Assembly: GCA_902780505.1 (NCBI GenBank)
Contig: CACZFN010000012.1
Location: 1 to 51,875, forward strand
DNA length: 51,875 bases
Direction: 5' to 3'
Origin: an uncultured Ruminococcus sp.
GTDB taxonomy: Bacteria > Bacillota > Clostridia > Oscillospirales > Ruminococcaceae
Position numbers and translations under genes: made by a program. Under the pieces are notes generated by a model that saw only the letters and a program-made list of their open reading frames with translations, was not told the DNA's origin and did no database searches. This document shows, piece by piece, positions 8,125 to 44,262 of this stretch (the first letter of the stretch is position 1; the number at the start of each line of letters is the position of its first letter).

Positions 8125-9270
8125 ATGCCGATATATGCAGTAAAAAATGTCAAAAAAGACGGCCAGCAGAAATACAGGGTGGTGTATAACTATACTGACC
8201 ATAACGGCGAATATAAAACTATAGAGCGCACAGCATACGGAAAGGCCAATGCCAAGCTCAAAGAGGAAGAACTCCGTATCATGACAACTAAGGGCAGCAG
8301 CACCGGCAGCATGATGACTCTTGATGAACTCTTTAACGAATATATAAAGGCTAAAAGCTATGAAGTAAGAGAAAGCTCACTCGATAAGACCGAGAGAATA
8401 CTTAAAGGCCGTGTTCTTGATACTCTCGGTAACAAGAAAATAGATAAGCTATTTCCTTCCGTCCTACAGGAGTGGAAAGCAAATATCGAAGAAATTGATT
8501 CTATAAAATCAGTCTCCACAAAGCGCGGGATCTTCAAGGAATTTCACGCAATGATGAATTATGCTGTAAAAATGGATTATATTATTGTCAATCCACTTGA
8601 TAAAGTAGGAAATTTCAAAGATGCCTATGCATATAAAAAAGAAATGCTGTTCTACACACCGGAAGAATTCAGAAAGTTTATAAGCGCGGCAAGGCAGTGC
8701 CGTGACGAGCGAGCCGCCAAAGGAGACTACACAGTACAGTATTATTATATGTTCTTTATGATCGCCTTTTTCACAGGAATGCGAAAAGGGGAGATCAATG
8801 CGCTCACATGGGAAGATGTCAACAATGGTATGATCAGTGTGAGAAGAAGTGTGAACCAGAAGCTTAAAGGCGGTGATCGAATCACACCGCCTAAAAATGC
8901 AAGCTCGGTCAGGGACATTCAGATCCCGAACGAGCTGAAAACGGCTCTCGATCATCATAAAGAGATATGCAGTAAGCTTCCGGGTTTCAGCGAAAAAATG
9001 TATATATGCGGCGGGGATATGCCGATCCGTGATACATCAATCGCAATTATGAATAATAGATTTGCTGATATGGCAGGTGTAAAAAGAATTCGTATCCACG
9101 ATTTCCGCCACAGTCATGCAAGCCTGTTGGCTAATAACGGCATAAGTATTCACGAGATCGCCCGCCGTTTAGGCCACGCCGATATAAAAATGACATTGCA
9201 GATCTACAGCCATTTATACCCTTCCGAAACAGAACGGGCACTGCGGGTTTTGAATGAAATAAAACTGTAG
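8125..9270 (+). CDS. int: Tyrosine-type site-specific integrase
   Basis: A 381-residue tyrosine recombinase. The N-terminal arm-binding domain (about 1-60) is followed by a SAM-like core-binding domain (about 65-165). The catalytic domain shows Arg in FFTGMRKGEINALTW, the H-x-x-R box in IHDFRHSHASLLANNG, GHADIKMT, and the nucleophile Tyr in IYSHLYP. It is full length. Binding site AAAGGAG precedes the ATG, and a GC-rich dyad (about 8072-8100) lies in the gap upstream. The attachment site is within 150 bases of its stop, as is usual. It integrates and, with a partner, excises the element covering at least 1-9422. Confidence 0.93.
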   Translation: MPIYAVKNVKKDGQQKYRVVYNYTDHNGEYKTIERTAYGKANAKLKEEELRIMTTKGSSTGSMMTLDELFNEYIKAKSYEVRESSLDKTERILKGRVLDTLGNKKIDKLFPSVLQEWKANIEEIDSIKSVSTKRGIFKEFHAMMNYAVKMDYIIVNPLDKVGNFKDAYAYKKEMLFYTPEEFRKFISAARQCRDERAAKGDYTVQYYYMFFMIAFFTGMRKGEINALTWEDVNNGMISVRRSVNQKLKGGDRITPPKNASSVRDIQIPNELKTALDHHKEICSKLPGFSEKMYICGGDMPIRDTSIAIMNNRFADMAGVKRIRIHDFRHSHASLLANNGISIHEIARRLGHADIKMTLQIYSHLYPSETERALRVLNEIKL

Positions 9271-10799: not shown

Positions 10800-11045
10800 A
10801 TGTCAAAGCGTGTGGCGGTCATCGCCATTATTGTTGAAAATGAAGAAAGCGTTGCACAGGTAAATGCAATACTGCACGAATACTCCGAAGGCATTATCGG
10901 CCGAATGGGTATCCCGTACAGGGCAAAGGGTATGAATATAATCTCGATAGCTATTGATGCCGGGCAGAACGATATTAACACTATAGCCGGAAAGATAGGA
11001 AAACTTGACGGCGTTACTGCTAAGACCGTTTATGCCCCGGTGTAA
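10800..11045 (+). CDS. TM1266-family ACT-domain regulator of the iron-only hydrogenase system
   Basis: The ATG at 10800 (MSKRVAVIAIIVENEES) follows AAAGGAG. The 81-residue product is a single ACT-like domain: a beta strand VAVIAIIVEN, the segment EGIIGRMGIPYRAKGMNIISIAI, and NTIAGKIGKLDGVTAKTVYA. This matches the TM1266 family, conserved beside hydE, hydF and hydG and annotated as a putative regulator of the [FeFe]-hydrogenase system. The ligand is unknown. The gene precedes hydF here, as in other Clostridia, but a MITE-like insertion and a possible attenuator separate the two. Confidence 0.85.
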   Translation: MSKRVAVIAIIVENEESVAQVNAILHEYSEGIIGRMGIPYRAKGMNIISIAIDAGQNDINTIAGKIGKLDGVTAKTVYAPV

Positions 11046-11057
11046 ACCGAATAATAA

Positions 11058-11231
11058 AGGCAACACCGCACAAAGGTTGTGTGTAAGATACGCCGCCAGG
11101 ATTTTCGTCAGATTGCCCAAATTTGCCGCAGGAATACTAACGTATTTCAAGGTGAATTTGGGTGATATGACGGAAATCCTGCAAGTAGATTGCACACAAA
11201 GCCGTTAGGCGGTCTTTGCGCGGTGTTGCCT
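11058..11231. mobile_element. MITE-like long inverted-repeat element
   Basis: The ends are inverted repeats: AGGCAACACCGCACAAAG at the left (11058-11075), and its near-exact complement ending CGGTGTTGCCT at the right. Internal segments are also complementary across the centre: CAGGATTTTCGTCA with TGACGGAAATCCTG, and CCCAAATTTGCC with GGTGAATTTGGG. The 174-base element would fold into one long hairpin and has no coding potential. A 4-base flanking duplication TAAA is visible. This is the architecture of a non-autonomous miniature transposable element. Confidence 0.65.
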
Positions 11232-11269
11232 AAAATACTTGTCTGACACCGAAAACCTGACTTTGAGGT

Positions 11270-11382: not shown

Positions 11383-12585
11383 ATGCCTTCACTTAACTCT
11401 GCACCTTCCTCGGAAAGAATACATATCGGCTTTTTCGGCAGGAGGAATGCGGGCAAATCAAGCCTTGTGAATAAGGTCACAAATCAGGAACTTTCTGTCG
11501 TTTCCGATACTGCCGGTACTACTACGGATCCTGTTTCAAAGGCTATGGAACTTCTGCCGCTCGGGCCTGTTGTTATAATAGATACAGCAGGCTTTGATGA
11601 TGAAGGAGAGCTCGGCCTCCTGCGTGTGAAAAAGACATCACAGGTGCTTAACAGGACGGATATAGCTGTCCTTGTTACCGATATCACTCTCCCGCTCGGT
11701 AAGTGTGAAAAGGAACTCGCAGCCCTGTTTGAACAAAAAAAGATACCTTATATAATAGTCGGCAATAAGTGCGATATCACTGATACCCCGCCCGACGGAG
11801 AACGTTTCCCCGTAAGTGCACTTAACGGGATAAATATAAACGAGCTTCGTGAAAAGATAGCCTCCCTTGTGGGGGTGCGTGACCAGACTATGCATATCGT
11901 CGGCGATCTGGTGAAAAAGGACGATATAGCCGTACTTGTTGTCCCGATAGATAAGGCTGCCCCGCGGGGCAGACTTATCCTCCCCCAGCAGATGGTCATT
12001 CGTGACCTCCTTGAAGCGGGTGCCTGTCCGCTTGTGTGCCGTGAAACCGAGCTTTCTTCGGCTCTTGGGAGTATATCAAAAAAGCCCTCGCTCGTCATAA
12101 CCGACAGTCAGGTGTTTGGCCTGGTAAGCAGGCAGACTCCCGAAGATATCCCCCTTACTTCCTTTTCGATACTTATGGCACGCTATAAGGGCTTTCTTGA
12201 ACAGGCTGTAAAGGGCGCATCTGCTATAAAGGAACTGAAGGATAACGATAAAATACTTATATCCGAGGGCTGTACCCACCATAGACAGTGCGGTGATATA
12301 GGAAGTGTAAAACTCCCTGCAAGCCTTGAAAAGACTACAGGCAAAAAATTGCAGATAACCCTTACTTCGGGCAAGGAATTCCCCGAAGAAATGCAGGAAT
12401 ATGCCCTTTGTATACACTGCGGGGGCTGTATGCTCAACGAGCGTGAAATGCTCAGCCGTATGCGTACCTCACTTGATAATGGTGTGCCTTTTACAAATTA
12501 CGGCACAGCACTTGCTTTTATGAACGGTATCCTCAGGCGAAGCCTTACGGTCTTCCCTGATATATTAAAGCTTGTTGATGAATAA
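11383..12585 (+). CDS. hydF: [FeFe]-hydrogenase H-cluster maturation GTPase HydF
   Basis: A 400-residue full-length HydF. HydF is the scaffold on which the 2Fe subcluster is completed and handed to apo-HydA. The GTPase domain (about 1-175) shows G1 GRRNAGKSS, G2 around TAGTTTDP, G3 DTAGFDD and G4 NKCD. The dimerisation region follows, and the C-terminal cluster-binding domain has the CTHH motif and CIHCGGC, whose residues bind the [4Fe-4S] cluster. The ATG at 11383 follows AAAGGAG. hydE starts 12 bases after the stop, so the two are cotranscribed. Confidence 0.95.
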   Translation: MPSLNSAPSSERIHIGFFGRRNAGKSSLVNKVTNQELSVVSDTAGTTTDPVSKAMELLPLGPVVIIDTAGFDDEGELGLLRVKKTSQVLNRTDIAVLVTDITLPLGKCEKELAALFEQKKIPYIIVGNKCDITDTPPDGERFPVSALNGININELREKIASLVGVRDQTMHIVGDLVKKDDIAVLVVPIDKAAPRGRLILPQQMVIRDLLEAGACPLVCRETELSSALGSISKKPSLVITDSQVFGLVSRQTPEDIPLTSFSILMARYKGFLEQAVKGASAIKELKDNDKILISEGCTHHRQCGDIGSVKLPASLEKTTGKKLQITLTSGKEFPEEMQEYALCIHCGGCMLNEREMLSRMRTSLDNGVPFTNYGTALAFMNGILRRSLTVFPDILKLVDE

Positions 12586-12597
12586 AACGGTGATATT

Positions 12598-13638
12598 ATG
12601 GTAAAAAAACTAATAGATAAGCTCGAAGCTGATACCCGCCTTTCAAAAGAGGAATGGGTGTGTGTGTTTGATGATTATTCTGATGATGACCGCGCCTATG
12701 CCGCAGAAAAGGCAAGGGCTGTGGCACATAAGTATTTCGGGAATAAAATATATATCCGCGGTATAGTCGAGTTTTCAAATGTGTGTAAAAACGATTGCTA
12801 TTACTGCGGTATAAGGTGTTCAAACAGCAATGCACAGCGCTACAGGCTTGATGATGATGATATCCTTCTTTGCTGTGATGAGGGGTATGAATATGGTTTT
12901 CGTACTTTCGTTTTGCAAAGCGGCGAGGATTACTCCGCTTACCCTGCTTCACGTATGGCAGAACTTGTGAAAAGAATAAAATCAGCCCACCCCGACTGTG
13001 CCGTTACGCTTTCGCTCGGTGAAATGGAGTATGAAGATCTGAAGCTTATGAGGCAGGCGGGCGCTGACAGATATCTTCTGCGCCATGAAACGGCAACTAA
13101 AGAGCATTATGAGAAACTTCACCCCGCAAAAATGTCGTTTGAGCACAGAATGGAATGCCTTGAAAACCTTAAAGCCCTCGGTTATCAGACGGGTGCCGGT
13201 ATGATGATAGGCGCACCCTTCCAGACAAATGAATACCTTGCAAACGATATGCTCTTTCTGCGGGAGTTTGAACCGCATATGATAGGTACAGGCCCGTTCC
13301 TGCCGCATAAGGATACCCCGTTTAAGGATATGCCCAAAGGCTCCTATGAACTTACACTCTTTGTCCTTAGCCTTTGCCGCCTTATGCTTCCCAGGGTACT
13401 CCTGCCCGCAACAACAGCTCTCGGCACTATCTCACCGCAGGGCAGGGAGCAGGGCGTGCTTTCGGGCGCTAATGTAATTATGCCAAACCTCTCCCCTGCA
13501 CAGGTGAGGAAAAAATATATGCTCTATGACGGCAAGATATGTACTGAGGATTCATCAGATGAATGCCGGCACTGCCTGACTGCCCGTATGAAGCGTATCG
13601 GCTACGAGATAGAAGTTTCAAGAGGTGACTATAAATGA
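12598..13638 (+). CDS. hydE: [FeFe]-hydrogenase maturation radical SAM protein HydE
   Basis: A 346-residue radical SAM enzyme. The cluster motif is C-x3-C-x2-C (CKNDCYYCG), and the C-terminal half has the HydE/PylB/BioB-type barrel with [14 protein letters not shown] and [11 protein letters not shown]. HydE acts on the HydG-derived Fe(CO)2CN-cysteine complex during H-cluster assembly. BioB is excluded by the HydE-specific segments and by the neighbour hydF. No hydG is found in the window. The stop overlaps the next start by 4 bases (ATGA), so translation of the nitrogenase-like genes is coupled to hydE. Confidence 0.92.
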
Positions 13639-14399
13639 TCAAGCTTGCAGTTTACGGAAAAGGCGGTATAGGTAAATCTACCGTTTCATGTAACGTCAGT
13701 GCCGCCCTTGCACGCCGGGGGCTGAAGGTCATGCAGATAGGGTGTGATCCTAAGGCAGACTCTACTTCGCTTCTTCACGGGGGGAAGCGCCTGCCTACAG
13801 TTTTGCAGCTTACCCGTGAAAAAGGGATTGGCAGGGTGTCACTTTCCGATATCGTCTTTGAGGGCGCTTTCGGCGTTAAATGTGTTGAAGCGGGCGGCCC
13901 TGTCCCCGGACTCGGCTGTGCGGGCAGGGGTATCATAAATGCCCTTGAAACGCTTGAAAAGCTTGGCGCATATGAAGTCTACAGCCCTGATGTGGTTATT
14001 TATGATGTCCTCGGTGATGTTGTCTGCGGCGGTTTTTCTATGCCTATGCGCAAGGGCTATGCAGATAAGGTGTTTGTTGTCACTTCGGGTGAGAAGATGT
14101 CTGTCTATGCCGGTGCAAATATCTGTATGGCGGTGGAAAATTTCAAGGGCAGGGGCTATGCATCACTCGGCGGTATCATTTTAAACCGCAGAGGTGTTGA
14201 AAATGAATATGACGCTGTAAATACCCTTGCAAGTGATTTTAACAGCACTGTTATTTCGGATATTCAAAGAAGTGCTGATATTCCCGCTGCTGAAAAGGCA
14301 GGAAAGACGCTTTTTGAAGTCTGTCCCGAAAGCATTGCTGTCAGTCAGATAGAAAAAACCGCACAGGGCATACTTTCCGCCTTCGGGGGTGAAGTATGA
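13635..14399 (+). CDS. Nitrogenase-like iron protein (NifH family), copy 1
   Basis: A 254-residue ATPase-reductase of the NifH/BchL/CfbC family. The P-loop GKGGIGKST is at residues 8-16, with CDPKADST after it. Both cluster ligands are present: Cys95 in PGLGCAGRG and Cys131 in DVVCGGF. These residues hold the [4Fe-4S] cluster between two subunits. It should pass electrons in an ATP-dependent way to the D1-K1 proteins encoded next. It is shorter than true NifH (about 290), and no nifB, E or N is nearby, so nitrogen fixation is unlikely. It overlaps hydE and D1 by 4 bases each. Confidence 0.9.
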
Positions 14400-15712
14400 A
14401 TAAAGAAAAAGGCTTTGACCGCCCGCCGTATATCACGATAAGGGACGCCGATATAAACGGTATCTTTCAGGGCGGCCTTGAATATAACCCTCCTGCCCGG
14501 GGAATGTGGAATATAGTACATACAGGTATGCTTGTACCCGAAGCGCACGAGATATTTGCCTGCGCGCAGGGGTGCCTGCGTGGTGTTATCCTTACTGCCG
14601 CCGAAATGCTTGCCCTTGACAGGCTCAGCTGGATATCGGTATCTGAGCAGGATATGTTTGACGGCACACTTGAACAGGATATAACAGACGGTGTTGATGA
14701 AATACTTTCAAAGCTGAAAAAGCGTCCGCCTGTCGTGCTTTTGTATTTAAGCTGTATACACCTTTTTGCAGGCGTGGATTTTGAAGCGATCCTTCAGACA
14801 CTCAGAGAGCATAATCCCGGTATTTATTTTGTTGATTGCTATATGACACCTACTATGCGTACCACAGTTTCACCTGTCATGAAAATGTCTGCACAGATAT
14901 ACGGCGCTTTAAATCCGCTGCCGCCTGATAAAAAATGTGTCGCCATTGTCGGCAATGACCGCGCAACTGATGAAGACAGCGAACTTGTAAGGATAATAAG
15001 ACAAAACGGCTTTACACTTTTTGATATAGCGTATTGCAAGACCTTTGATGAATACCTTGAAATGGCAAAAAGCTCTCTTAATATCAGCTATATCCCCACA
15101 GGCGTGCTTGCAGGGGACGAACTTGAAAAGCGCTTTGGCATCAGGCATCTGCATATTCCTGCATCTTATGATTTTAATACGATAGAATACAATTACTCGC
15201 TTCTTTGTCAGGCGCTCGGCGTGGAAAAGCCTGATCTTTCAAAGGATATCAGTGAAGCTTCATCAGCGCTTGATGATGCTTTGTCGGTGATAGGCGATAC
15301 CCCTGTGGCTGTAGACTACACCGCAGTAACACGCCCGTTTGAACTTGCAGCACTGCTTTGTAAACACGGATTTAACGTAAAATATGTTATAGCTGACAGC
15401 GCGGGCGGCGAAAGTGAAGCCTTTGAGTGGCTCAAAGAAAACGTTCCCGAACTGATGATATATTCACCTGTGAATGTAAATATGCTCACTTTCCCTGAGA
15501 AGCCGCATGAAAGTATTCTGGCAATAGGTCAGAAAGCTGCACATTACTTTTCAAGCGACAATTTTGTAAATATCATAGTAAACGGCGGCTATTACGGCTT
15601 TAGCGGCATAAAGAAGCTGGCTGTTCTTATGAAGAAAGCATACCTTGCCCCTAAGGACAGAAAAGCCCTTCTGCGGTTAAAAGGTATGGGCTGTGCAAGC
15701 TGCCTGATCTAA
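14396..15712 (+). CDS. Nitrogenase-like component 1, NifD-type, copy 1
   Basis: A 438-residue protein of the oxidoreductase/nitrogenase component 1 family. Visible candidate cluster ligands are Cys56 and Cys60 ([10 protein letters not shown]) and Cys120 (LYLSCIHLF). They sit where NifD has its second and third P-cluster cysteines; the first NifD cysteine has no counterpart. The FeMo-cofactor ligands of NifD are not recognisable. The C-terminus ends in an unusual GCASCLI tail with Cys433 and Cys436. It probably forms a heteromer with K1 reduced by H1. The substrate is unknown. It overlaps H1 by 4 bases. Confidence 0.85.
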
Positions 15713-15733
15713 GGCAGGGACCTATGTTCAGAT

Positions 15734-15770
15734 AAGGAGGAAGCACGCAGCACGGCGTGCGGTAAAAATG
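15734..15770 (+). promoter_or_regulatory. Shine-Dalgarno site set apart from its start codon by a hairpin
   Basis: AAGGAGG at 15734-15740 lies 27 bases before the ATG at 15768, too far for normal initiation. Between them is a perfect 6-base-pair GC-rich hairpin (GCACGC 15743-15748, GCGTGC 15755-15760). Folding it reduces the effective spacing to about 9 bases. No alternative start codon lies in frame closer to the site. This sets the K1 start and may tune its translation. Confidence 0.6.
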
Positions 15771-16883
15771 AAAAATGTTTCACGGATAATCCCATGCTAT
15801 GCAGCGGATACTTCGGGGGTGTGCTCGGCGCTTTACGAGCTTTCGGGAATGACAGTCGTGCATGACGCTTCGGGCTGTAATTCGACCTATGCTACCCACG
15901 ATGAACCCCGCTGGGAGGATAAAAGGTCTGATATTTACATTTCAGCCCTTACCGAAATGGACGCTATCATGGGAAATGACGAAAAATTTATAAATGATAC
16001 AGTAAGTGCTGCAAAGGACAGAAAACCTTTGTTTATGACCGTGTGCGGCTCGCCGATGCCTATGATGACAGGCGTGGATTTTGATGCAGTGGCAGAGGAG
16101 ATAGAAAAAAGAAGCGGTATACGCACTTTTGCTATGCACACAAACGGCACACGTTCGTATATAGAAGGCGCTGACGAAGCATTTGCTGCTGTGGTAAGGG
16201 AATACGCAAGGCCTTTGGAAAAGATAAAAAACGGCGTTGATGTTCTGGGGCTTACCCCGCTTGATTTCAAGCTTGGCAGTGATGTTTCCATAAAAAAATG
16301 GCTTTGTGAAAACGGCTTTGAAACTGTTATGACACTTGCAATGGGGGATACACTCGAAAGCGTGAAAAAAGCCGCAGCTGCCGAAGTGAGCCTTGTTGTG
16401 TCGGCAGCAGGCCTTTCAGCGGCAAAGTATCTGAAAAATGAATATGATATCCCCTATATATGCGGCGTGCCGACGGGCAGGGCTTTTTCAAGAAAGCTTG
16501 CAGACGCGCTTAAAAACGGCGAAAAGATAGCTTACCCGCTTTCTCAGACACCTGATGTGCTTGTGATAGGGGAGAGCATACAGGCGCTTTCCATAGCAAG
16601 TTCGCTCACAGAAGAACTCGGTATAAGCGCAAATGCAGTCTGTACCCTGCCATGTGATGAAGAAATAAGAAACGGCGCATTTAAAGCAGATTGTGAGGAG
16701 GATATCGAAGCCTTGCTTTCAGAACTTTCCCCTGAAACGGTGATCGCAGATCCGTTTTATAAATATATCCTTCCCGAAGATACAAGGCTTGTGGCACTGC
16801 CGCATTTTGCCTTTTCCGGCAGGTGCTTTGAACGGGATCTTAAAGACATAATAAATACAGATATCGGAGAACTGATAAAATGA
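15768..16883 (+). CDS. Nitrogenase-like component 1, NifK-type, copy 1
   Basis: A 371-residue component-1 protein, much shorter than NifK (about 520) and close to CfbD in size. It carries three cysteines at P-cluster-like places: Cys19 (SGVCSALYE), Cys37 (DASGCNSTY) and Cys93 (FMTVCGSP). An R-W-E-D-K-R-S segment and [11 protein letters not shown] follow, typical of this superfamily. It is expected to pair with D1 and take electrons from H1. The gap to D1 is 55 bases and contains the hairpin-spaced ribosome binding site. The stop overlaps the start of H2 by 4 bases. Confidence 0.85.
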
Positions 16884-17644
16884 TAAAAATAGCTTTATAC
16901 GGCAAGGGCGGCATAGGAAAATCCACCTGCACCGCAAACCTTTCTGCCGCACTTGCATCTCTTGGGAAGCGTGTTATACAGATAGGGTGTGATCCCAAAG
17001 CGGATTCAACAATAAACCTTCTCCATGGAGATGCCGTTATACCCGTTATGGATTATATGCGCAAATATGATGAAGAACCCGAAAGGATAGAAGATATCTC
17101 AAAAATAGGCTATGGCGGTGTTCTTTGCATCGAAACAGGCGGCCCTACGCCGGGACTTGGCTGTGCGGGCAGGGGGATAATCACTACATTTTCGCTGCTT
17201 GAGCAGCTTGAGCTTTTTAAAAAGTACAAGCCCGACGCTGTGCTCTATGATGTGCTTGGTGACGTTGTCTGCGGCGGGTTTGCCGCACCTATACGTGAGG
17301 GCTATGCCGAACAGGTGCTTATTGTCACCTCCGGTGAGAAAATGGCACTTTATGCCGCAAATAATATTTTCAGCGCAGTAAAGAATTTTGAAGACAGAAG
17401 CTATGCCAGGGTGCGCGGTGTTATAATGAACAGGAGAAATGTCGAAAATGAAGAAGCGAAGGTGCGCGCTTTTACAGAAAAGGCAGGCATTGAGATAACT
17501 GCCGACATACCGCGCTCTGCCGATATAATAAAGTACGAAGATATGGGTATGACCTGTGTCGAGGGTGATCCTGAATGTGATGCCGCAAAGCGCTTTACAG
17601 CCCTGGCACAGACACTTATTGACGAGGATGAAAAAAATGCGTGA
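16880..17644 (+). CDS. Nitrogenase-like iron protein (NifH family), copy 2
   Basis: A second 254-residue NifH-like protein, same length as copy 1 and with ligands at the same positions: P-loop 8-16 (GKGGIGKST), Cys95 (PGLGCAGRG), Cys131 (DVVCGGF). The sequences differ in the 45-85 region, which suggests an old duplication, each copy matched to its own D-K pair. It overlaps K1 by 4 bases and D2 by 8 bases. It is likely the dedicated reductase of the second triad. Confidence 0.9.
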
Positions 17645-18932
17645 CGCTTATTATATTACCGCCCGTGAGCTTGCCGAAAACGGCTGCGAACACCTCCCCG
17701 AAGAACTTGATTCTTCAAAGCATATGATATATTCTTCCCCGGCGACGCTTGATTTCAATTCCCCCGGGGCAAAGGGCTTTGGTGTGAAGCGTGCGGGACT
17801 TGTGATACCTGAGTCTGTCATGCTGCTTATAGCCCCGGGCTGCTGCGGCAGAAATACAGCACTGCTCAGTGACCTCGGCTATGACGAGCGCTTTTTCTAC
17901 CTTTGCCTTGATGATACTGATATAGTAACAGGTAGGTATGTAAATAAAATTCCTGAAGCCTGCAAAGAGCTTTTAGAAGAACTTGACTATACACCATCGG
18001 TGATAATGCTTTGTGTCACCTGTGTTGATGCACTGCTTGGCACTGATATGGAACGTGTCTGCCGTGCCTGCTATGAACTTACAGGGGTAAAGGCTGCCCC
18101 CGCTTATATGTATGCGCTTACCCGTGAAAAACGCCTGCCGCCTATGGGACTTGTAAGAAAGAGCATCTACTCACTTCTTGAAGCTCAGAAAAGAAGATCA
18201 AATGAATGTAATATACTCGGCTTTTTTTCAGCGCTTGACGATAAAAATGAATTGTACAGTCTTCTTTCATCAGCGGGGATAAAGAAGATTCACGAGATAG
18301 GCAGATGCAAAACATTTGAGGAGTATAAAGAGCTTTCACGGGCAAATTTCAGCATTGTGCTCAATTCCGAAGCCCGCGCCGCCGCACAGGATATGCAGGA
18401 AAGGCTCGGTATACCGTTTATTGAGCTTACAAGAATGTACAGGCTTGATAAGATACATAACCAGTACCGGCTTTTAGGGCAGGCGATAGGCGCTTCGCTT
18501 GATGACAGCGCTTATTATGAAAGCGCAAAAAAGAAAATAGATGACTTCAAAGCCCGATACGGCGCAGTTACGTTTGCAGTTGGGGAAAGCCTTAACGCAG
18601 ACAGCTTTGAACTTTCGCTTGCGCTTTGTGAGTATGGCTTCAGAGTGGCTGAAATATACGGTACTGTCGGCGAGCGCAATTTTGTGTTTGTAAAAAAGCT
18701 TGCGGAGATCTCCCCCGATACAAGGATATATTCAAACCTTTCCCCGACAATGATGAACTACACACCTGCAAAGGAAATACAGGCGGCTATAGGCGCTGAT
18801 GCGTGTTATTATCACAGCGGTATCGCAGGTGCTGCGTTTAACAGCGAAGCGCAGGTCTTCGGCTACCGCGGGGCAGAGGTCTTGTTTGACGAACTGTCAG
18901 AAGCAATAGATAAAAAGGGAGGGGTATCGTAA
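17637..18932 (+). CDS. Nitrogenase-like component 1, NifD-type, copy 2
   Basis: I chose ATG 17637 ([16 protein letters not shown]), overlapping H2 by 8 bases; the frame is open upstream but lies inside H2. The 431-residue protein belongs to the component-1 family. Candidate ligands are Cys69 and Cys70 (IAPGCCGRN) and Cys126 and Cys129 (MLCVTCVD). It therefore differs from D1 in the ligand pattern around the second site (CC rather than C-x3-C), and it lacks the GCASC tail. The C-terminal part has [15 protein letters not shown]. Probably heteromeric with K2, substrate unknown. Confidence 0.83.
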
Positions 18933-20002
18933 TGAAAAAGCTGTTAAAGTATATATCTCCCCTTGCCCCCGATGATTCGGGCGCCTGTTCGGTGCTTTAC
19001 GAAATGGGCGGCATAACCGTTATATGTGATGCGGGCGGATGTGCGGGAAATGTATGCGGTTTTGACGAACCGAGATGGTTTGAAAAACGCTCGGCACTGT
19101 TTTCGGCAGGGCTCAGGGATATGGACGCTATACTCGGCCGTGACGACCTTCTTGTAAAGAAGCTTGCTAAGATAACACAGCAGATAGACGCCCCGTTTAC
19201 CGCAATAGTCGGAACACCTGTTCCTGCGGTAATAGCGACTGACCTAAAAGCTATAGAGCGTATGGCAATGAAGAAAACCGCACTCCCTTGTATCGCACTT
19301 GGAACAGACGGCACAGGGCTTTACGATCACGGCGAGGAAATGGCGTACTACAGGCTTTTCGAGATGTTTGCCACAGAGAAGCTTGATGTTAAAAAGGGCA
19401 AGCTCGGCGTGATAGGTGCCACACCGCTTAATACGGGTGAAACTGACAGCGTGAGGATAAAGGAAACGCTTGACAAAAGCGGTTTTGAGAAAATAGTCTG
19501 CTTTGGTATGGATTCTTCACTTGAAGAAGTAATAAAGGCAAGTGAGTGTGAGCGCCTGCTTGTTATAGCTCCCTCAGGGATAAAGGCGGCAAAGCTTATG
19601 AACGAACGTTTCGGCACGCCTTTTGATGCAGGCTACCCCGATGATTCCCGCGGCGTGCTTCTGCCGGGCGATGATGCGGTAAAATGCACCTGCGGCCTTA
19701 AAGGAAGCCGTGTGCTTATAATACATCAGCAGTTCTATGCAAATGCCCTGCGTGAAAAGTATGAAAGACTTGCAGGGTGTGATGTGACGGTGGGAAGCTT
19801 CTTTATGATGGATAAAGACTATATGCGTGAGGGCGATATCCGTTTCAGGGATGAAGATGACCTTGCAAAAGCTGCGGCTTCGGGCAAATATGATATCATT
19901 TGTGCGGATAAGCGTTTTTCACGTGTGCTCAAAGGCTTTGATATAAAGCATTTCCCGCTTCAGCATTTTGCAGTAAGCGGAACGCTCAACCGTGACATAT
20001 AA
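18932..20002 (+). CDS. Nitrogenase-like component 1, NifK-type, copy 2
   Basis: A 356-residue partner of D2, starting in a TAATG overlap with it. Cys19 (SGACSVLYE) and Cys37 (DAGGCAGNVC) align without gaps with K1. The third position, Cys93 in K1, is Val93 here (FTAIVGTP). A further Cys42 follows the second site. The second pair therefore probably binds a differently ligated cluster, or K2 has become structural. FDEPRW-x3-RS and DMDAILG are shared with K1. hypF starts 14 bases after the stop. Confidence 0.83.
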   Translation: MKKLLKYISPLAPDDSGACSVLYEMGGITVICDAGGCAGNVCGFDEPRWFEKRSALFSAGLRDMDAILGRDDLLVKKLAKITQQIDAPFTAIVGTPVPAVIATDLKAIERMAMKKTALPCIALGTDGTGLYDHGEEMAYYRLFEMFATEKLDVKKGKLGVIGATPLNTGETDSVRIKETLDKSGFEKIVCFGMDSSLEEVIKASECERLLVIAPSGIKAAKLMNERFGTPFDAGYPDDSRGVLLPGDDAVKCTCGLKGSRVLIIHQQFYANALREKYERLAGCDVTVGSFFMMDKDYMREGDIRFRDEDDLAKAAASGKYDIICADKRFSRVLKGFDIKHFPLQHFAVSGTLNRDI

Positions 20003-20015
20003 AAAGGTAATAAAA

Positions 20016-22325
20016 ATGCAGACAGTAAACATTCATGTATACGGGATAGTTCAGGGCGTTGGGTTTCGCCCGTTTACCTCGGTACTTGCAAAGCGTTTCG
20101 GGATAAGGGGGAGCGTTTGCAATAAAGGCTCCTATGTAGAGATAATCGCACAGGGTGAAAAAACGGCTGTAAGGGATTTTGCAGACAGTATAAAAAACCG
20201 CCCGCCCGAACGTGCTGTGATACTTGGACTTGATATGACAGAACTTGCAGGCTTTGAAAAAGTGTTTGATGGGTTTTCTATCATTGAAAGTGAAAAAGAA
20301 TACGGGCGTATCTTTGTATCCCCCGATATAGCCACCTGTGATAAATGCAGGGACGAGCTTTTTGACAAAAACAACAGGCGGTATCTTCACCCGTTTATAA
20401 ACTGCACACAGTGCGGGCCGAGGCTTACGATACTTGATTCAATGCCTTATGACAGAGGGCGCACGAGCATGAAGAAATTCCCCATGTGCAAAAGCTGTGA
20501 GGAGGAATACTTTTCCCCGAAAACACGCCGCTATGATGCACAGCCCGTGTGCTGCAACGACTGCGGCCCGAAGGTCTACATCATAGGTGAGGATACAAAC
20601 GGGCTTGATGCGATAAGCAAGGTAAGAAAAGTCATAATGCAGGGCGGTATAGCTGCTGTTAAGGGCATAGGCGGGTTTCACCTTTGCTGTGATGCTAAGA
20701 ATGAAAAAGCAGTTATGCGGCTGCGTGAACTGAAACACAGGCCAATGAAGCCGTTTGCTCTGATGATGAAAGACCTTGAAACGGTAAAGCGCGAATGTAT
20801 AATAAAGGACGGGCAGGAGGAGTACCTCACAGGCTGGCAGAAACCGATAATGCTGCTTGAAAAGCGGGAAAATATGTCGGTTTGTGATATGATAGCTCCT
20901 GATAATCTTACCGTCGGGGTGATGCTGCCGTATGCACCGCTGCATATGCTGATTTTTGAACTTCCCGACGGTGGGGCTATGACAGATACCCTTGTTATGA
21001 CAAGCGGCAATGCACGCGGTGCACCAATCTGCCGCAATGACGAGGATGCAGTCAGGGAAATAGGCTGCTTTTGTGACATCATTCTTTCACATGACAGGGA
21101 TATTGTGATAAGAGCCGATGATTCGGTCTGCGACTGGGTTTACGGCAGGCCGTATATGATAAGACGTTCACGCGGGTTTGCGCCGCTTCCCGTGATGACG
21201 TCGGGTGCGGTGAAAAGTGTTGTTGGTATCGGCGGCGAGCTTAAAAACAGCTTTTGTATCTCAAAAGACGGTATGCTGTACCTTTCGCCGTATATAGGCG
21301 ATATGGCTGATATCAGAACGCTTAAAGCACTTGATGAATCGCTTGAACGCATGACAGATATGCTTGAAGCTGCCCCGCAGGCGGTGGTAAGTGATATGCA
21401 CCCGCTTTACAATACTGTGTCCTATGCGCAGGAGTACAGTAAAAAACATGATATCCCGCTTGTAAGTATACAGCACCATTATGCTCATATACTATCCTGC
21501 ATGGCGGAAAATGACAGGTCTGACAGGGTGATAGGTCTGTCACTTGACGGCACAGGCTACGGCGAGGATAAGACTATCTGGGGCGGTGAGATACTCCTTT
21601 GTGACTTCAGCGGGTTTACAAGGGCAGGCAGCATTAGACAGTTTGTTCAGACAGGCGGTGACCTTTCCGCAAAGGAGGGCTGGCGTATTGCCGCTTCACT
21701 TATGCGTGACAGTTTTGGTGAGGGCGGCAGGGATATCTGCACAAAGCTTGGCATATGCAATTCAGGCGAATATGACCTGCTTGACAAGATGGCACAAAAG
21801 GGGCTCAACAGTATAGCAAGCACAAGTGCCGGGAGGCTGTTTGATGCGGTTTCTGCGATACTTGGGATAAGGCGGGCATCGACATTTGAGGGTGAAGCAT
21901 CTTCATCGCTTATGTACCACGCGGAGCTTTACAGCAAAACACCGGGCGCGTATGCTTTTGAAAGCGGCTATGACGGCGCACTTATAAGCGGAAATGACAG
22001 CTTTATCACCCTTGAAACAACAGCGCTTGCGGCATATATTGCAAGTGAGCGTATAAAGCTTGGCGGGCAGGATACAGACAGGCTCAGCTATGAATTCCAT
22101 TTTGTTCTCAGCCGTATGCTTGTAAAGGCGTGTGAGATGATAAGGGAGAGGACCTCGCTTGGCACTGCAGCGTTAAGCGGCGGGGTGTTTCAGAACAGAC
22201 TGCTTGTCAAGCTTACAAACGAGGGGCTTAAAGAAAAGGGCTTTGAGGTGCTTCTTCACAGTCTTGTGCCGCCAAATGACGGCGGTATAGCACTCGGACA
22301 GGCAGTGTTCGGTGCAAAAAATTAG
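20016..22325 (+). CDS. hypF: Carbamoyltransferase HypF
   Basis: The start at ATG 20016 (MQTVNIHVYGIVQGVGFRPF) follows AAAAAGG. The 769-residue protein shows all HypF parts: N-terminal acylphosphatase domain (1-90), two zinc fingers (CDKCRDEL, CTQCGPRL, CKSCEEEY, CNDCGPK), a YrdC-like domain (about 195-380) and a Kae1-like C-terminal domain (with QHHYAHI and SLDGTGYGED). HypF uses carbamoyl phosphate and ATP to carbamoylate the C-terminal Cys of HypE, the source of the cyanide ligands of [NiFe]-hydrogenases. It follows K2 at 13 bases. No hydrogenase structural gene of that type is present. Confidence 0.95.
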   Translation: MQTVNIHVYGIVQGVGFRPFTSVLAKRFGIRGSVCNKGSYVEIIAQGEKTAVRDFADSIKNRPPERAVILGLDMTELAGFEKVFDGFSIIESEKEYGRIFVSPDIATCDKCRDELFDKNNRRYLHPFINCTQCGPRLTILDSMPYDRGRTSMKKFPMCKSCEEEYFSPKTRRYDAQPVCCNDCGPKVYIIGEDTNGLDAISKVRKVIMQGGIAAVKGIGGFHLCCDAKNEKAVMRLRELKHRPMKPFALMMKDLETVKRECIIKDGQEEYLTGWQKPIMLLEKRENMSVCDMIAPDNLTVGVMLPYAPLHMLIFELPDGGAMTDTLVMTSGNARGAPICRNDEDAVREIGCFCDIILSHDRDIVIRADDSVCDWVYGRPYMIRRSRGFAPLPVMTSGAVKSVVGIGGELKNSFCISKDGMLYLSPYIGDMADIRTLKALDESLERMTDMLEAAPQAVVSDMHPLYNTVSYAQEYSKKHDIPLVSIQHHYAHILSCMAENDRSDRVIGLSLDGTGYGEDKTIWGGEILLCDFSGFTRAGSIRQFVQTGGDLSAKEGWRIAASLMRDSFGEGGRDICTKLGICNSGEYDLLDKMAQKGLNSIASTSAGRLFDAVSAILGIRRASTFEGEASSSLMYHAELYSKTPGAYAFESGYDGALISGNDSFITLETTALAAYIASERIKLGGQDTDRLSYEFHFVLSRMLVKACEMIRERTSLGTAALSGGVFQNRLLVKLTNEGLKEKGFEVLLHSLVPPNDGGIALGQAVFGAKN

Positions 22326-22492: not shown

Positions 22493-22702
22493 ATGTGTGT
22501 TGGTTTATCGGCTAAGGTAGTAAGTGTAAAGGATCAGACGGCCTTGATAGAAGCAGGCGGCGCTCAGAGAGCGATAAGTGCAGGTGTGCTCGATGACCTT
22601 GAACCCGGGGATTATGTAATGGTACACGCAGGTGTTGCTATTGCAAAGATAACCGAAACAGACGACGAGGAAGCCGCAGACGTAATGGGAGAATTATTAT
22701 GA
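22493..22702 (+). CDS. hypC: Hydrogenase maturation chaperone HypC
   Basis: A 69-residue HypC/HupF-family protein. It starts with Met-Cys (MCVGLSAKVVSV); this Cys becomes N-terminal and helps hold the Fe(CN)2CO unit with HypD. The OB-like body ends in LEPGDYVMVHAGVAIAKI. Length is normal. GGAAAG precedes the ATG, and the stop overlaps hypD by 4 bases, matching their function as a complex. Confidence 0.93.
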   Translation: MCVGLSAKVVSVKDQTALIEAGGAQRAISAGVLDDLEPGDYVMVHAGVAIAKITETDDEEAADVMGELL

Positions 22703-23748
22703 ATGAACAGATGATAAAAGCCCGTGACATAATTACCGGCTACAAAGGCAGACCTTTGCGTATTATGGAAGTATGCGGCACGCATACGCACGAGATATTC
22801 AGGCTTGGCATAAGAAAGCTTGTACCTGAAAATGTTGAGATAATATCAGGCCCCGGGTGCCCCGTATGCGTAACTGCGGTGGGGTTTATCGACGAGGCGG
22901 TATGGCTTGCACTTGAAAAGGGGTGCACTGTCTGTACCTTCGGTGACCTGATAAAAGTTCCCGGGACGGAGATGTCGCTTGCGGGGGCAAGGGCAAAGGG
23001 GGCTAAGGTAAGACCTGTATACTCACCGCTTGATGCGGTAGAGCTTGCAAGGCAGAACCCCGGCGAGCAGGTGGTGTTTCTTGCAGTAGGCTTTGAAACG
23101 ACGACACCTTCAGCCTGCCTTGCGGCAAAGCAGGCAAGGGACGAGGGACTGAAAAACTTTTCACTTCTGACAGCGAACAAGACAATGCCAAATGCATACA
23201 ATGCGCTTGTAGGCAGTGCTGATGCATTTATATACCCCGGGCACGTAAACGCAATAACGGGAAATTCCGCCTGCATAAAGCTTTGCGAAGAAAAGGGCGT
23301 TTCGGGCGTTGTCGCCGGGTTTACGGCAAGCGAGCTTGTTACGGCTTTAGCGGTATGCATAAGGCTTCTTGAAAAGGGAGAGCCGTTTTTCCGCAACTGT
23401 TACCCGCGTGTGGTAAAGGACGAGGGCAATAAGGCGGCGATAAAGCTTATGAATGAAGTAATGCAGCCCTGTGACAGTGAATGGAGGGGCTTAGGGCTTA
23501 TACCAATGTCGGGCATGGAACTCAGAAGTGAGTATGCCGGGTTTGATTCAAGAAAGAAATATAATATGCCTAAGATAACAGGCAGGCCGAACCCTGCCTG
23601 CCGCTGCGGCGACGTTTTGCAGGGCAAGTGCAAGCCGAGTGACTGCAAGGTGTTCGGCAAGGTATGCACACCGCTTCACCCTGTGGGGGCTTGTATGGTA
23701 TCGGACGAGGGCGCGTGTTCGGCTTATTATCAGTATGCCGGTCAGTAG
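22699..23748 (+). CDS. hypD: Hydrogenase maturation protein HypD
   Basis: A 349-residue full-length HypD. Conserved motifs are present in order: CGTHTHEIF, GPGCPVCVT, VGFETTTP, and the C-terminal [4Fe-4S] region CRCGDVLQGKCKPSDC with CTPLHPVGACMVS. With HypC it carries iron while HypE delivers cyanide, building Fe(CN)2CO. All cysteines expected for function are kept, so the enzyme should be active although no [NiFe] hydrogenase is nearby. Confidence 0.95.
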   Translation: MNEQMIKARDIITGYKGRPLRIMEVCGTHTHEIFRLGIRKLVPENVEIISGPGCPVCVTAVGFIDEAVWLALEKGCTVCTFGDLIKVPGTEMSLAGARAKGAKVRPVYSPLDAVELARQNPGEQVVFLAVGFETTTPSACLAAKQARDEGLKNFSLLTANKTMPNAYNALVGSADAFIYPGHVNAITGNSACIKLCEEKGVSGVVAGFTASELVTALAVCIRLLEKGEPFFRNCYPRVVKDEGNKAAIKLMNEVMQPCDSEWRGLGLIPMSGMELRSEYAGFDSRKKYNMPKITGRPNPACRCGDVLQGKCKPSDCKVFGKVCTPLHPVGACMVSDEGACSAYYQYAGQ

Positions 23749-23866: not shown

Positions 23867-24877
23867 ATGACTGAAAACACAGTAACGCTTGCACACGGTG
23901 CAGGCGGAAAACAGACAAGTGAACTTATTGAAAAGGTATTCAAGGCGCATTTTGCAAACCCCGAATTTACAGCTGATGATGCGGCTGTACTGCCGAAGGC
24001 CGAAGGACGGCTCGGGTTTACGACGGACGGGTTTATAGTTTCACCGTGGAAGTTTAACGGCGGAAACATCGGCAAGCTTTCTGTCTGCGGGACGGTAAAT
24101 GACCTTTCCTGCATGGGTGCAAAACCGCTTTACATGACCTGCGCATTTGTTATCGAGGAGGGATTCCCGCTTGATGCGCTTGAAGAAATAGCTTCGGCAA
24201 TGGAAAAGACCGCAAAGGAAGTCGGCGTGAAGATAGTAGCGGGTGATACCAAAGTTGCAGGCAAGGGGCAGTGCGACGGGGTGTTTATAACCACTACGGG
24301 TATGGGCGTTATCCGCGAGGGCGCAGATACCTCGGGCAAATACGCAAAACCGGGTGATGCTGTTATAGTAACAGGTGACGTAGGAAGGCATGGGTGCACC
24401 ATTCTTATCGCAAGGGATACCTACGGGATAGAAAGTGATGTTGACAGCGATTGTGCACCGCTTTGGGCGACGGCAGAGAGCGTTTTTGATGCGGCTGACA
24501 ATGATGTACACGTAATACGTGATGCAACAAGGGGCGGTGTCGGCACAGTGCTTTACGAGATAGCCGAGCAGAGTGATGTCGGCATAGCGCTTGACCAGAC
24601 AAAGATCCCTGTAGATGAGCGTGTAAAGGGCGTATGCGGTATGCTCGGGCTTGAACCGTTATACCTTGCCTGCGAGGGCAGGTTTGTGATATTTGCACCT
24701 GCTGACAAGGCGGAAAAAATAGTTGAAGCACTAAAAAAAGGCAAGTATTCGCAAAATGCCGCCATAATAGGCAGGGTAACGGCTGAAAACAAGGGCAGGG
24801 TGATACTTGAGACCGAGATAGGTACACAGACGATACTGCCGCAGCCAAAGGGAGAGCTTCTGCCGAGGATATGCTGA
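23867..24877 (+). CDS. hypE: Hydrogenase maturation protein HypE
   Basis: A 336-residue PurM-like ATPase. The N-terminal AHGAGGKQTSELI and the middle GDVGRHG and DATRGGVG segments are typical. The last four residues are PRIC, the essential tail whose Cys is carbamoylated by HypF and dehydrated to thiocyanate. The gap from hypD is 118 bases without clear terminator. No hypA or hypB (nickel insertion) follows; the next gene is pta behind its own promoter, so this ends the maturation gene run. Confidence 0.95.
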   Translation: MTENTVTLAHGAGGKQTSELIEKVFKAHFANPEFTADDAAVLPKAEGRLGFTTDGFIVSPWKFNGGNIGKLSVCGTVNDLSCMGAKPLYMTCAFVIEEGFPLDALEEIASAMEKTAKEVGVKIVAGDTKVAGKGQCDGVFITTTGMGVIREGADTSGKYAKPGDAVIVTGDVGRHGCTILIARDTYGIESDVDSDCAPLWATAESVFDAADNDVHVIRDATRGGVGTVLYEIAEQSDVGIALDQTKIPVDERVKGVCGMLGLEPLYLACEGRFVIFAPADKAEKIVEALKKGKYSQNAAIIGRVTAENKGRVILETEIGTQTILPQPKGELLPRIC

Positions 24878-26181: not shown

Positions 26182-26628
26182 TTGAAAATATCCACAAAAG
26201 TCGAATTCGGAATAATAGCACTTGCAGATATAGCGATATATCAGAAAAACGGGAAAACTGTTTCTTCGGCGGATATATCGGGCAGGCAGGGGATATCGCA
26301 GAAGTACCTTGAACAGATACTTGTAAGCCTGAGACAGGCGGGGCTGATAAGGGGACACAAGGGCTCAAAGGGCGGATATGTGCTTACACACCCGGCATCA
26401 GCGATATCATTCAGCGACATTTTAAATGCACTTGACAACAGTATACTGTCGGATACATATTTAAGCGAGGAGGAGCCTGCTAACGGGCTCAGAGCCTGTG
26501 TACACAGCTGTGTGCTTGACAAGCTAAATAAAATACTTACACGTTTTACCGCCGATATGACGCTTGAAAGCTTTATTGAATGCTACAATTCCTTACAGAA
26601 CGAAGCAAATGTGATGTATTACATTTAG
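26182..26628 (+). CDS. Rrf2-family transcriptional regulator (CymR/IscR-like)
   Basis: A 148-residue Rrf2 protein started by a TTG codon (KISTKVEFGIIALADIA) with AGGAGAAAGGA upstream. The winged HTH includes SSADISGRQGISQKYLEQIL and GLIRGHKGSKGGYVL. The effector region contains ACVHSCVL and FIECYNS, giving three cysteines near but not clearly in the IscR cluster spacing. It may therefore sense Fe-S status like IscR or cysteine status like CymR. It precedes a probable operon of glutamate-cysteine ligases and sufCBDSU, and the operator-like dyads upstream of that operon make it the likely regulator. Confidence 0.88.
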   Translation: MKISTKVEFGIIALADIAIYQKNGKTVSSADISGRQGISQKYLEQILVSLRQAGLIRGHKGSKGGYVLTHPASAISFSDILNALDNSILSDTYLSEEEPANGLRACVHSCVLDKLNKILTRFTADMTLESFIECYNSLQNEANVMYYI

Positions 26629-26664
26629 TTTAGCAAACGGGCTAATTAATCAGAAGTCTATATA

Positions 26665-26700
26665 ATTCCTATTGACAAAATAGGAAATGCGTGATATAAT
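26665..26700 (+). promoter_or_regulatory. Promoter and Rrf2-type operator of the gcs-suf operon
   Basis: TTGACA at 26672-26677, 17-base spacer and TATAAT at 26695-26700. A perfect dyad TTCCTAT-N7-ATAGGAA (about 26666-26686) covers the -35. A second dyad AATTCC-N13-GGAATT lies about 26707-26731, just downstream of the start. These resemble CymR/Rrf2 sites in Firmicutes (from memory), and similar half-sites flank the regulator's own promoter. Confidence 0.7.
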
Positions 26701-26774
26701 AATTTTAATTCCTACCTTTGAAATCGGAATTTTATATTACAGACCTTACACATACTTACCACGGAGGAATAGAC

Positions 26775-28160: not shown

Positions 28161-28188
28161 AATACACATAATTAAGGAAACTGCATTT

Positions 28189-29346: not shown

Positions 29347-29372
29347 AATTACGAAGAAAAGGCGGTGAAAGA

Positions 29373-30122: not shown

Positions 30123-30136
30123 GGAGAGATGGTAAA

Positions 30137-32295: not shown

Positions 32296-32338
32296 TGATA
32301 TGCCATATGGTCTGCAAAACAAAAAGGAGAGCATACAA

Positions 32339-44216: not shown

Positions 44217-44262
44217 TCTTTTATCCTGATTACAAGTATATTACGAGGAGTTGTTTTTGGCA

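What the first reader, a model, noticed from the sequence alone, without database searches (positions are those of the whole stretch)
13635..20002. Tandem pair of nitrogenase-like H-D-K triads inside a hydrogenase-maturation gene run
Seen: six overlapping genes in the order H1 D1 K1 H2 D2 K2, with intact NifH-type P-loops and both cluster cysteines (95, 131) in each H, and short component-1 proteins (356-438 residues). Known: related NifH-D-K-like enzymes perform demanding reductions, such as chlorophyll precursor reduction (Bch/Chl), F430 synthesis (CfbCD) and methylthio-alkane reduction. Inference: this doubled set, coupled to hydF-hydE in front and hypFCDE behind, is a distinct pathway, perhaps making or modifying an Fe-CN-CO or tetrapyrrole-type cofactor. 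Nitrogen fixation is unlikely since nifB/E/N and cofactor ligands are missing.
Basis: partly seen in the sequence, partly recalled or inferred. Interest (0 to 1): 0.92.

Follow-up and report, generated by a model that had tools for sequence, protein, structure and literature searches.

The report
Likely alternative hydrogenase cofactor assembly line
Two sets of nitrogenase-like genes sit among hydrogenase-building genes in gut and acetogenic bacteria, and nearly all the genomes examined lack HydG, the enzyme known to make the carbon monoxide and cyanide ligands of iron-iron hydrogenase, so they probably belong to a second, undescribed way of building that cofactor.

Summary
In detail: hydF-hydE-H1-D1-K1-H2-D2-K2-hypF-hypC-hypD-hypE lie in one direction. 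The proteins are nitrogenase-like but below the curated Nif, Bch and Cfb cut-offs. The decisive fact lies outside the window: this genome has a complete [FeFe] hydrogenase but no HydG and no [NiFe] hydrogenase. A scan of named genomes confirmed 402 related stretches; the best 80 were kept as loci, including Ruminococcus albus, Clostridium ljungdahlii, a spirochaete and a lentisphaerian. Of 50 whole genomes that I chose from these 80, 50 have [FeFe] hydrogenase domains, 2 have HydG and 6 have a [NiFe] large subunit. Two separable modules emerge: H1D1K1 with HydE/HydF, and H2D2K2 with its own HypFCDE clade. Where module 2 is missing, an iron-complex-type ABC transporter usually stands in. Best reading: a HydG-independent route to the H-cluster, with HypFCDE giving cyanide and the two ATP-driven reductases giving or processing the CO-bearing iron unit. 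Replacement of HydG rests on genome content; the chemistry is inference. A 2022 acetogen survey reported missing hydG and HypCDEF without HypAB, and proposed an atypical radical-SAM protein or unknown mechanisms. I found no paper in the held library describing this pathway.

The parts
10800..11045 (+). TM1266-like 'iron-only hydrogenase system regulator'
   Evidence: PF21699 102 bits; beside the cluster in 61 of 80 related loci
11383..12585 (+). hydF, H-cluster maturation GTPase/scaffold
   Evidence: TIGR03918 536 bits, cut-off 326
12598..13638 (+). hydE, H-cluster radical SAM maturase
   Evidence: TIGR03956 540 bits, cut-off 255; CKNDCYYC motif
13635..14399 (+). H1, NifH-like Fe protein of triad 1
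   Evidence: PF00142 288 bits; P-loop, Cys95, Cys131
14396..15712 (+). D1, component-1 alpha-like subunit of triad 1
   Evidence: PF00148 57 bits; C56, C60, C120 in 52 of 52 orthologues, C-terminal tail C433 in 51 and C436 in 48 of 52; AlphaFold pLDDT 89, nitrogenase-type fold
15768..16883 (+). K1, component-1 beta-like subunit of triad 1
16880..17644 (+). H2, NifH-like Fe protein of triad 2
   Evidence: PF00142 294 bits; P-loop, Cys95, Cys131
17637..18932 (+). D2, component-1 alpha-like subunit of triad 2
   Evidence: PF00148 84 bits; C69, C70, C126, C129 in 38 of 38
18932..20002 (+). K2, component-1 beta-like subunit of triad 2
   Evidence: PF00148 66 bits; C37, C42 in 37 of 37 and C32 in 36 of 37
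19992..22325 (+). hypF (its true start may be the ATG eight codons downstream of the listed GTG)
   Evidence: TIGR00143 721 bits, cut-off 466
22493..22702 (+). hypC, subfamily with MCVGL start
   Evidence: PF01455 74 bits; start compared
22699..23748 (+). hypD
   Evidence: TIGR00075 403 bits; in the triad-linked HypD clade, support 100/99
23867..24877 (+). hypE, C-terminal PRIC intact
   Evidence: AIRS/AIRS_C domains; tail GELLPRIC

Best explanation
The cluster is a HydG-independent route for assembling the H-cluster (Fe, CO, CN-) of [FeFe] hydrogenases. SHOWN by genome content and linkage: triad 1 stands beside hydE/hydF in many loci and triad 2 beside a dedicated HypFCDE set; 48 of 50 genomes examined lack HydG over its cut-off, 50 of 50 hold an [FeFe] hydrogenase domain and 44 of 50 no [NiFe] large subunit. 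INFERRED mechanism: HypF/HypE make cyanide from carbamoyl phosphate and HypC-HypD hold an Fe-CN unit, as they do for [NiFe] enzymes. Triad 2, an ATP-driven low-potential reductase, works with HypCD, most likely generating its CO ligand by reduction of CO2 or another C1 donor, or feeding electrons to HypD. Triad 1 turns that unit into the Fe(CO)x(CN) substrate of HydE, perhaps carried on the conserved C-terminal cysteine tail of D1. HydE and HydF then finish the cluster as usual. In genomes without triad 2 and Hyp, a FecBCD-type ABC transporter probably imports an iron complex that feeds triad 1.
For: (1) Own genome: HydG below cut-off, only HydE rings; no [NiFe] large subunit; a complete HydA (TSCCPGW, IPCSAKKFE, EIMACPGGC) of group A6 with a NuoF-like partner. 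(2) Relatives: 10 of 61 genomes have the triad-type K gene; 0 of these 10, but 26 of all 61, have HydG over cut-off. (3) Whole genomes behind 50 of the 80 kept loci (my choice, to cover both variants and the isolates): HydG 2 of 50, [FeFe] domain 50 of 50, [NiFe] large subunit 6 of 50. (4) Linkage: hydE, hydF or TM1266-like in 65 of 80 loci (hydE 49, hydF 42, TM1266-like 61), hydG in 0 of 80. (5) Modules: 68 of 80 loci hold triad-2 genes, 62 of these hyp genes (the other 6 lie on contigs that end there); 12 show no triad 2, 0 of these hyp, 10 FecBCD genes; in one genome the modules stand apart. (6) Triad-linked HypD is one clade (100/99), apart from [NiFe]-type HypD, second copies in the same genomes included. 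(7) HypD in 39 of 39 triad-2 genomes of the 50; in 2 of 22 HydG-bearing relatives searched, both with [NiFe]-type hits. (8) R. albus 7 makes H2 in pure culture (PMC6776011, passages); the three R. albus genomes searched (8, KH2T6, AR67; not strain 7) have the cluster and neither HydG nor [NiFe] large subunit.
Against: No biochemical or genetic evidence. C. drakei and C. thailandense have both HydG and the cluster. PMC9431212 (passages) proposes an atypical HydG-like radical SAM protein in seven of its eight acetogens, among them C. ljungdahlii and C. carboxidivorans; I could not test that candidate. In C. ljungdahlii nothing but a HydE-like match rang the HydG model, but 23 of the 50 genomes have a below-cut-off match of 174-217 bits that stops before the model's C-terminal part and looks ThiH-like. 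In six Clostridium loci no hyd gene lies within the fetched flank. Single-triad genomes have neither HydG nor HypD, so Hyp cannot be the universal cyanide source. Relatives G014, G026 and G031 have [FeFe] domains but neither HydG/HydE matches nor the triads, so a missing HydG alone proves little. The nearest outside HDK genes (Treponema and Sporomusa plasmids) sit with siderophore-type ABC transporters and no annotated hyd genes. Counted by genus in the relatives the mutual exclusion is not significant (Fisher p 0.11; by genome 0.003). HydF was not searched genome-wide.
Confidence: 0.7

Rival explanations
1. CO and CN- come from an unlinked source: an atypical HydG-like radical SAM protein, or free cellular CO and CN-, used by HydE/HydF. 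The triads only supply low-potential electrons, or regulate or repair the hydrogenase system.
For: PMC9431212 (passages) proposes such a radical SAM protein in acetogens and cites weak HydG-free activation by HydE+HydF with trace diatomics; 23 of 50 genomes have below-cut-off matches to the HydG model that look ThiH-like.
Against: In C. ljungdahlii and in the window's genome only HydE-like matches ring the HydG model; a dedicated HypFCDE clade goes with triad 2; two full ATP-driven reductases are a costly way to give electrons.
Confidence: 0.14
2. Triad 2 and HypFCDE mature a [NiFe] hydrogenase, and triad 1 has an unrelated job.
For: HypCDEF are defined by [NiFe] maturation; five of the six Clostridium genomes searched have a [NiFe] large subunit.
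Against: 44 of 50 whole genomes and the window's own genome have no [NiFe] large subunit; C. carboxidivorans, C. muellerianum, C. thailandense and the lentisphaerian carry a second, different HypC/HypD pair, within a few kb of the [NiFe] hit.
Confidence: 0.04
3. The triads reduce something else (a tetrapyrrole, a siderophore or another iron chelate, a methylated sulfur compound), and the hyd/hyp proximity reflects shared anaerobic or iron control.
For: FecBCD-linked HDK relatives stand with siderophore-type transporters without hyd genes; K1's predicted fold is closest to BchB.
Against: Linkage to hydE/hydF/TM1266-like genes in 65 of 80 loci, HydG in only 2 of 50 genomes and a FecE-TM1266 fusion point to a hydrogenase role; scores below the Cfb and Bch cut-offs.
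Confidence: 0.1

Closest known systems
HydEFG maturation of [FeFe] hydrogenase
   Same: HydE and HydF present and intact in the window; target [FeFe] hydrogenase present in the genome
   Different: HydG, the source of Fe(CO)2(CN) from tyrosine, is missing; two HDK triads and HypFCDE stand in its place
HypABCDEF maturation of [NiFe] hydrogenase
   Same: HypF, HypC, HypD, HypE with key motifs (PRIC tail, GPGCPVC, MC start)
   Different: No [NiFe] large subunit in 44 of 50 genomes; HypD a separate clade and HypC with an MCVGL start; HypA/HypB not seen beside the cluster in the window and not searched genome-wide
DPOR/COR (BchLNB, BchXYZ) and CfbCD
   Same: Two-component ATP-driven nitrogenase-like reductases; K1 fold nearest BchB; few conserved cysteines, as in enzymes with a simple [4Fe-4S] (inference)
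   Different: Scores below curated cut-offs; outside Bch in both trees; no tetrapyrrole gene recognised next to the triads in the window
MarBHDK methylthio-alkane reductase / NifHDK / NifEN
   Same: Homologous H, D, K
   Different: D and K lie outside the Nif and Mar-like rows; no nifB beside them; a Mar-like cluster is separate on contig C23 of the same genome
HDK + FecBCD clusters (Treponema saccharophilum pTS1, Sporomusa termitida pSPTER)
   Same: Nearest outside relatives in the D/K trees; same transporter type as the single-triad variant
   Different: No annotated hyd genes nearby; function unknown to me

Membership tests
HydEFG H-cluster maturation | HydE and HydF present | tested here: met
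   540 and 536 bits over cut-offs
HydEFG H-cluster maturation | HydG present | tested here: not met
   Own genome best 65.7 bits against a cut-off of 312, and that is HydE
HydEFG H-cluster maturation | Genome encodes [FeFe] hydrogenase with H-cluster ligands | tested here: met
   PF02906 339 bits; TSCCP, PCxxK and EIMACPGGC motifs
[NiFe] hydrogenase maturation (Hyp) | HypCDEF | tested here: met
   HypF, HypD, HypE, HypC
[NiFe] hydrogenase maturation (Hyp) | [NiFe] large subunit as client | tested here: not met
   No PF00374 match in own genome
[NiFe] hydrogenase maturation (Hyp) | HypA and HypB | not tested
Nitrogenase NifHDK | Curated NifH/NifD/NifK score cut-offs | tested here: not met
   NifH 300/307 against 394; NifD and NifK models at most 22 and 20 bits against 654 and 427
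Nitrogenase NifHDK | Active-site cofactor ligands (Cys275/His442 in NifD, recalled) | tested here: inconclusive
   No conserved cysteine seen by eye at the corresponding stretch of D1/D2; no superposition made
CfbCD | Curated CfbC / CfbD cut-offs | tested here: not met
   CfbC model 300/294 against 402; no CfbD match listed at E 1e-3 for D1, K1, D2, K2
DPOR/COR (Bch) | Curated BchL/BchB cut-offs; place in tree | tested here: not met
   195/205 against 345 and at most 51 against 490; outside Bch in both trees (one Bch reference set)
MarHDK | Place in D and K trees | tested here: inconclusive
   Outside the Mar-like rows (own C23, Chlorohelix), but these are called Mar-like from gene context and recall; no characterised Mar sequence was in the tree
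Nitrogenase-like two-component reductase superfamily | NifH-type ATPase plus component-1 fold in D and K | tested here: met

The most novel reading that the evidence does not exclude
Nature has a second complete route to the [FeFe]-hydrogenase H-cluster. It joins the [NiFe]-type cyanide machinery (HypFCDE) to two dedicated nitrogenase-like reductases, one of which (triad 2) generates the CO ligand on HypCD by ATP-driven reduction of a C1 compound. This would be an enzyme candidate for anaerobic CO-ligand synthesis and a biochemical bridge between the two hydrogenase classes. A streamlined variant lives on an imported iron complex.
Probability: 0.35. Interest if true: 0.96.

Novelty: categorically new. 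Interest (0 to 1): 0.9.

Why it matters
H-cluster biosynthesis is taught as HydE+HydF+HydG. If bacteria such as R. albus and C. ljungdahlii build active [FeFe] hydrogenases without HydG, a whole enzyme system has been overlooked in well-studied H2 producers and industrial acetogens. It would explain the missing hydG, the HypCDEF without HypAB and the doubled HypCDE of C. carboxidivorans reported in 2022 (PMC9431212, passages). [quoted passage not shown] It would add a new reaction class to nitrogenase-like enzymes and a new route for producing hydrogenases.

Tried and rejected
Neighbour clustering over 29 of the 80 loci found no further conserved partner gene (largest shared family in 4 loci, a FeoB-like GTPase by eye). 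The HypD tree lacks the Proteus sequence because my frame search failed, and several of its [NiFe]-type branches are long. The D/K trees hold one Nif operon, one Bch set and Mar-like rows, with no CfbD or characterised MarDK; some reference branches are long, so the placement of outsiders (Treponema D beside triad 1, Treponema K beside triad 2) is unsure; one row that I labelled Nif (G044) falls with the Mar-like rows. Fold comparison does not single out a function: D1 ties among VnfK, AnfK, BchB and NifN types. In the FecBCD count I left out generic ABC-ATPase hits at 29% identity (FecE2) in L137, L146 and L159. Of the 12 loci without triad 2, L111 ends just after K1, L163 has triad 2 on another contig of its genome, and L152 and L165 are only 4-6 kb long. 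Counts are not all independent: G053 and G095 (L156) agree in contig length and coordinates, L153 is a near copy of L156, and L094, L099, L102 and L107 match contigs of relatives G002, G004, G003 and G006 in length. The 402 stretches are not 402 genomes: K1, K2 and two patterns may each count. Tetrapyrrole synthesis and nitrogen fixation were set aside on scores and trees, a [NiFe]-only role on genome content.
Full report
What is there. The window (contig C12 of a 2.82 Mb, 98.6% complete genome) holds, all on the + strand, a TM1266-like regulator, hydF, hydE, H1-D1-K1, H2-D2-K2, hypF, hypC, hypD and hypE. The coordinates of the finding are right; the only correction is a 55-base gap between D1 and K1. 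Both H proteins keep the P-loop and Cys95/Cys131. D and K are recognisable only as members of the nitrogenase component-1 family (57-92 bits) and score far below the curated Nif, Bch and Cfb cut-offs; the H proteins reach about 300 bits against cut-offs near 400 for NifH and CfbC. HypF, HypC, HypD and HypE keep their key motifs, including the C-terminal PRIC of HypE.

The decisive fact lies outside the window. The same genome encodes a complete group-A6 [FeFe] hydrogenase with all H-cluster motifs, but HydG, the enzyme that makes the Fe(CO)2(CN) unit from tyrosine, is missing: the only match to its model is HydE at 65.7 bits against a cut-off of 312. There is no [NiFe] hydrogenase large subunit either. 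So HypFCDE, the [NiFe] cyanide machinery, has no [NiFe] client in this genome, and HydE/HydF have no HydG.

Spread and mutual exclusion. In 61 genomes (the own one and 60 relatives) the K1 search matched 13; 10 of these (all 7 of the genus, plus G028, G036, G053) are real relatives, and the other 3 (G029, G034, G044) are weak matches (E 1e-7 to 4e-4). HydG is over its cut-off in 26 of 61 and in 0 of the 10. Fisher's test gives p 0.003 by genome but 0.11 by genus, since seven are one genus. A scan of named genomes confirmed 402 stretches, of which the best 80 were kept as loci: mostly Ruminococcus and other Oscillospiraceae, also Clostridium ljungdahlii, carboxidivorans, drakei, muellerianum, luticellarii and thailandense, a spirochaete and a lentisphaerian. 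Of 50 whole genomes that I chose from these 80 to cover both variants and the isolates, HydG is over the cut-off in 2 (C. drakei, C. thailandense), an [FeFe] hydrogenase domain is in 50, and a [NiFe] large subunit in 6 (five Clostridium and, at 41 bits, the lentisphaerian). Against this, 23 of the 50 have a below-cut-off match of 174-217 bits to the HydG model that stops before its C-terminal part; I take these for ThiH-like proteins, without a test.

Two modules. Of the 80 loci, 68 hold triad-2 genes; 62 of these have hyp genes, and the six without lie on contigs that end there. The 12 without triad 2 have no hyp genes; 10 of them carry FecB/FecCD/FecE-type transporter genes (three weak generic ATPase hits in triad-2 loci were not counted; some of the 12 are short contigs). 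HypD is present in 39 of 39 triad-2 genomes and 1 of 11 others of the 50, and in that one (G101) triad 2 with hypFCDE stands on another contig while triad 1 stands with hydE and hydF. So triad 2 goes with HypFCDE, and triad 1 goes with HydE/HydF where hyd genes are linked. In Clostridium the order is H2D2K2-hypFCDE-H1D1K1 and no hyd gene lies within the fetched flank. In G053 the transporter ATPase is fused to a TM1266-like domain, which ties the transporter to the hydrogenase system.

A dedicated Hyp set. The 23 triad-linked HypD proteins in the tree, from Bacillota, a spirochaete and a lentisphaerian, form one clade (100/99), apart from 9 [NiFe]-type HypD, including second copies in C. carboxidivorans, C. 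muellerianum, C. thailandense and the lentisphaerian. The triad-linked HypC proteins listed all start MCVGL; none of the 8 others compared does. Of the 26 HydG-bearing relatives 22 were searched for HypD; 2 have it, and both have [NiFe]-type hits.

Mechanism. Shown: gene content, linkage, mutual exclusion within the limits above, and separate clades. Inferred: HypFE make cyanide, HypCD carry the iron, triad 2 supplies CO by reducing a C1 compound or supplies electrons, triad 1 makes the HydE substrate, and HydE/HydF finish. The transporter in the single-triad variant would bring an iron complex in place of module 2; since those genomes have neither HydG nor HypD, their cyanide source is unexplained.

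Literature. A 2022 survey of acetogenic Clostridium found HydE and HydF in each species but no HydG by known motifs in five of eight, HypCDEF without HypAB in five, and two HypCDE sets in C. carboxidivorans. It proposed an atypical HydG-like radical SAM protein in all species but C. autoethanogenum, or ligand-incorporating mechanisms not yet identified (PMC9431212, passages read). I could not test that candidate; in C. ljungdahlii my HydG search saw only a HydE-like match. [quoted passage not shown] R. albus 7 makes H2 in pure culture (PMC6776011, passages); that strain's genome was not searched here, but R. albus 8, KH2T6 and AR67 were. Searches listed no paper that I recognised as describing nitrogenase-like proteins in hydrogenase maturation; I opened passages of seven papers in all, and the library holds open-licence papers only.

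Weak points. No experiment; HydF, HypA and HypB not searched genome-wide; three relatives (G014, G026, G031) have [FeFe] domains with neither HydE/HydG matches nor triads; some genomes are counted under two handles; trees lack CfbD and characterised Mar.

Noticed in passing
G000 contig C23, L055:5340-12724: NifB-like, NifH, NifD-like, NifK-like and NifX-like genes, next to genes that look by eye like cysteine synthase and a sulfhydrylase: a MarBHDK-like cluster in the same genome; no further component-1 genes (NifEN) were found there.
   Followed up: partly
window 44251-45948: A divergent [FeFe]-hydrogenase-like protein (565 aa) lacking the TSCCP and EMACPGGC motifs, with Fer4 and FeS domains; possibly a sensory type.
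   Followed up: partly
genomes G014, G026, G031: [FeFe] hydrogenase domains (4-5 matches each) but no match to the HydG model (not even HydE) and no triads: another unexplained maturation case.
   Followed up: no
L189:8640-16296 (Treponema saccharophilum pTS1) and L194:3948-11272 (Sporomusa termitida pSPTER): HDK triads beside FecB/FecCD/FecE-type transporters without annotated hyd genes nearby; function unknown to me.
   Followed up: partly
L051:1693-3072: ABC transporter ATPase fused to a C-terminal TM1266-like domain.
   Followed up: yes
window 11060-11240: Stretch between the TM1266-like gene and hydF whose two ends look inversely repeated by eye (gcaacaccgcacaaag ... cgcggtgttgcc), perhaps a small mobile element.
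   Followed up: no
window 26182-34436: SUF-type genes (SufB/SufD by Pfam) after a glutamate-cysteine-ligase gene, a second weakly similar one and what looks like an Rrf2-type regulator, shortly downstream of hypE.
   Followed up: no
window 8125-9270: Phage-type integrase upstream of the cluster.
   Followed up: no
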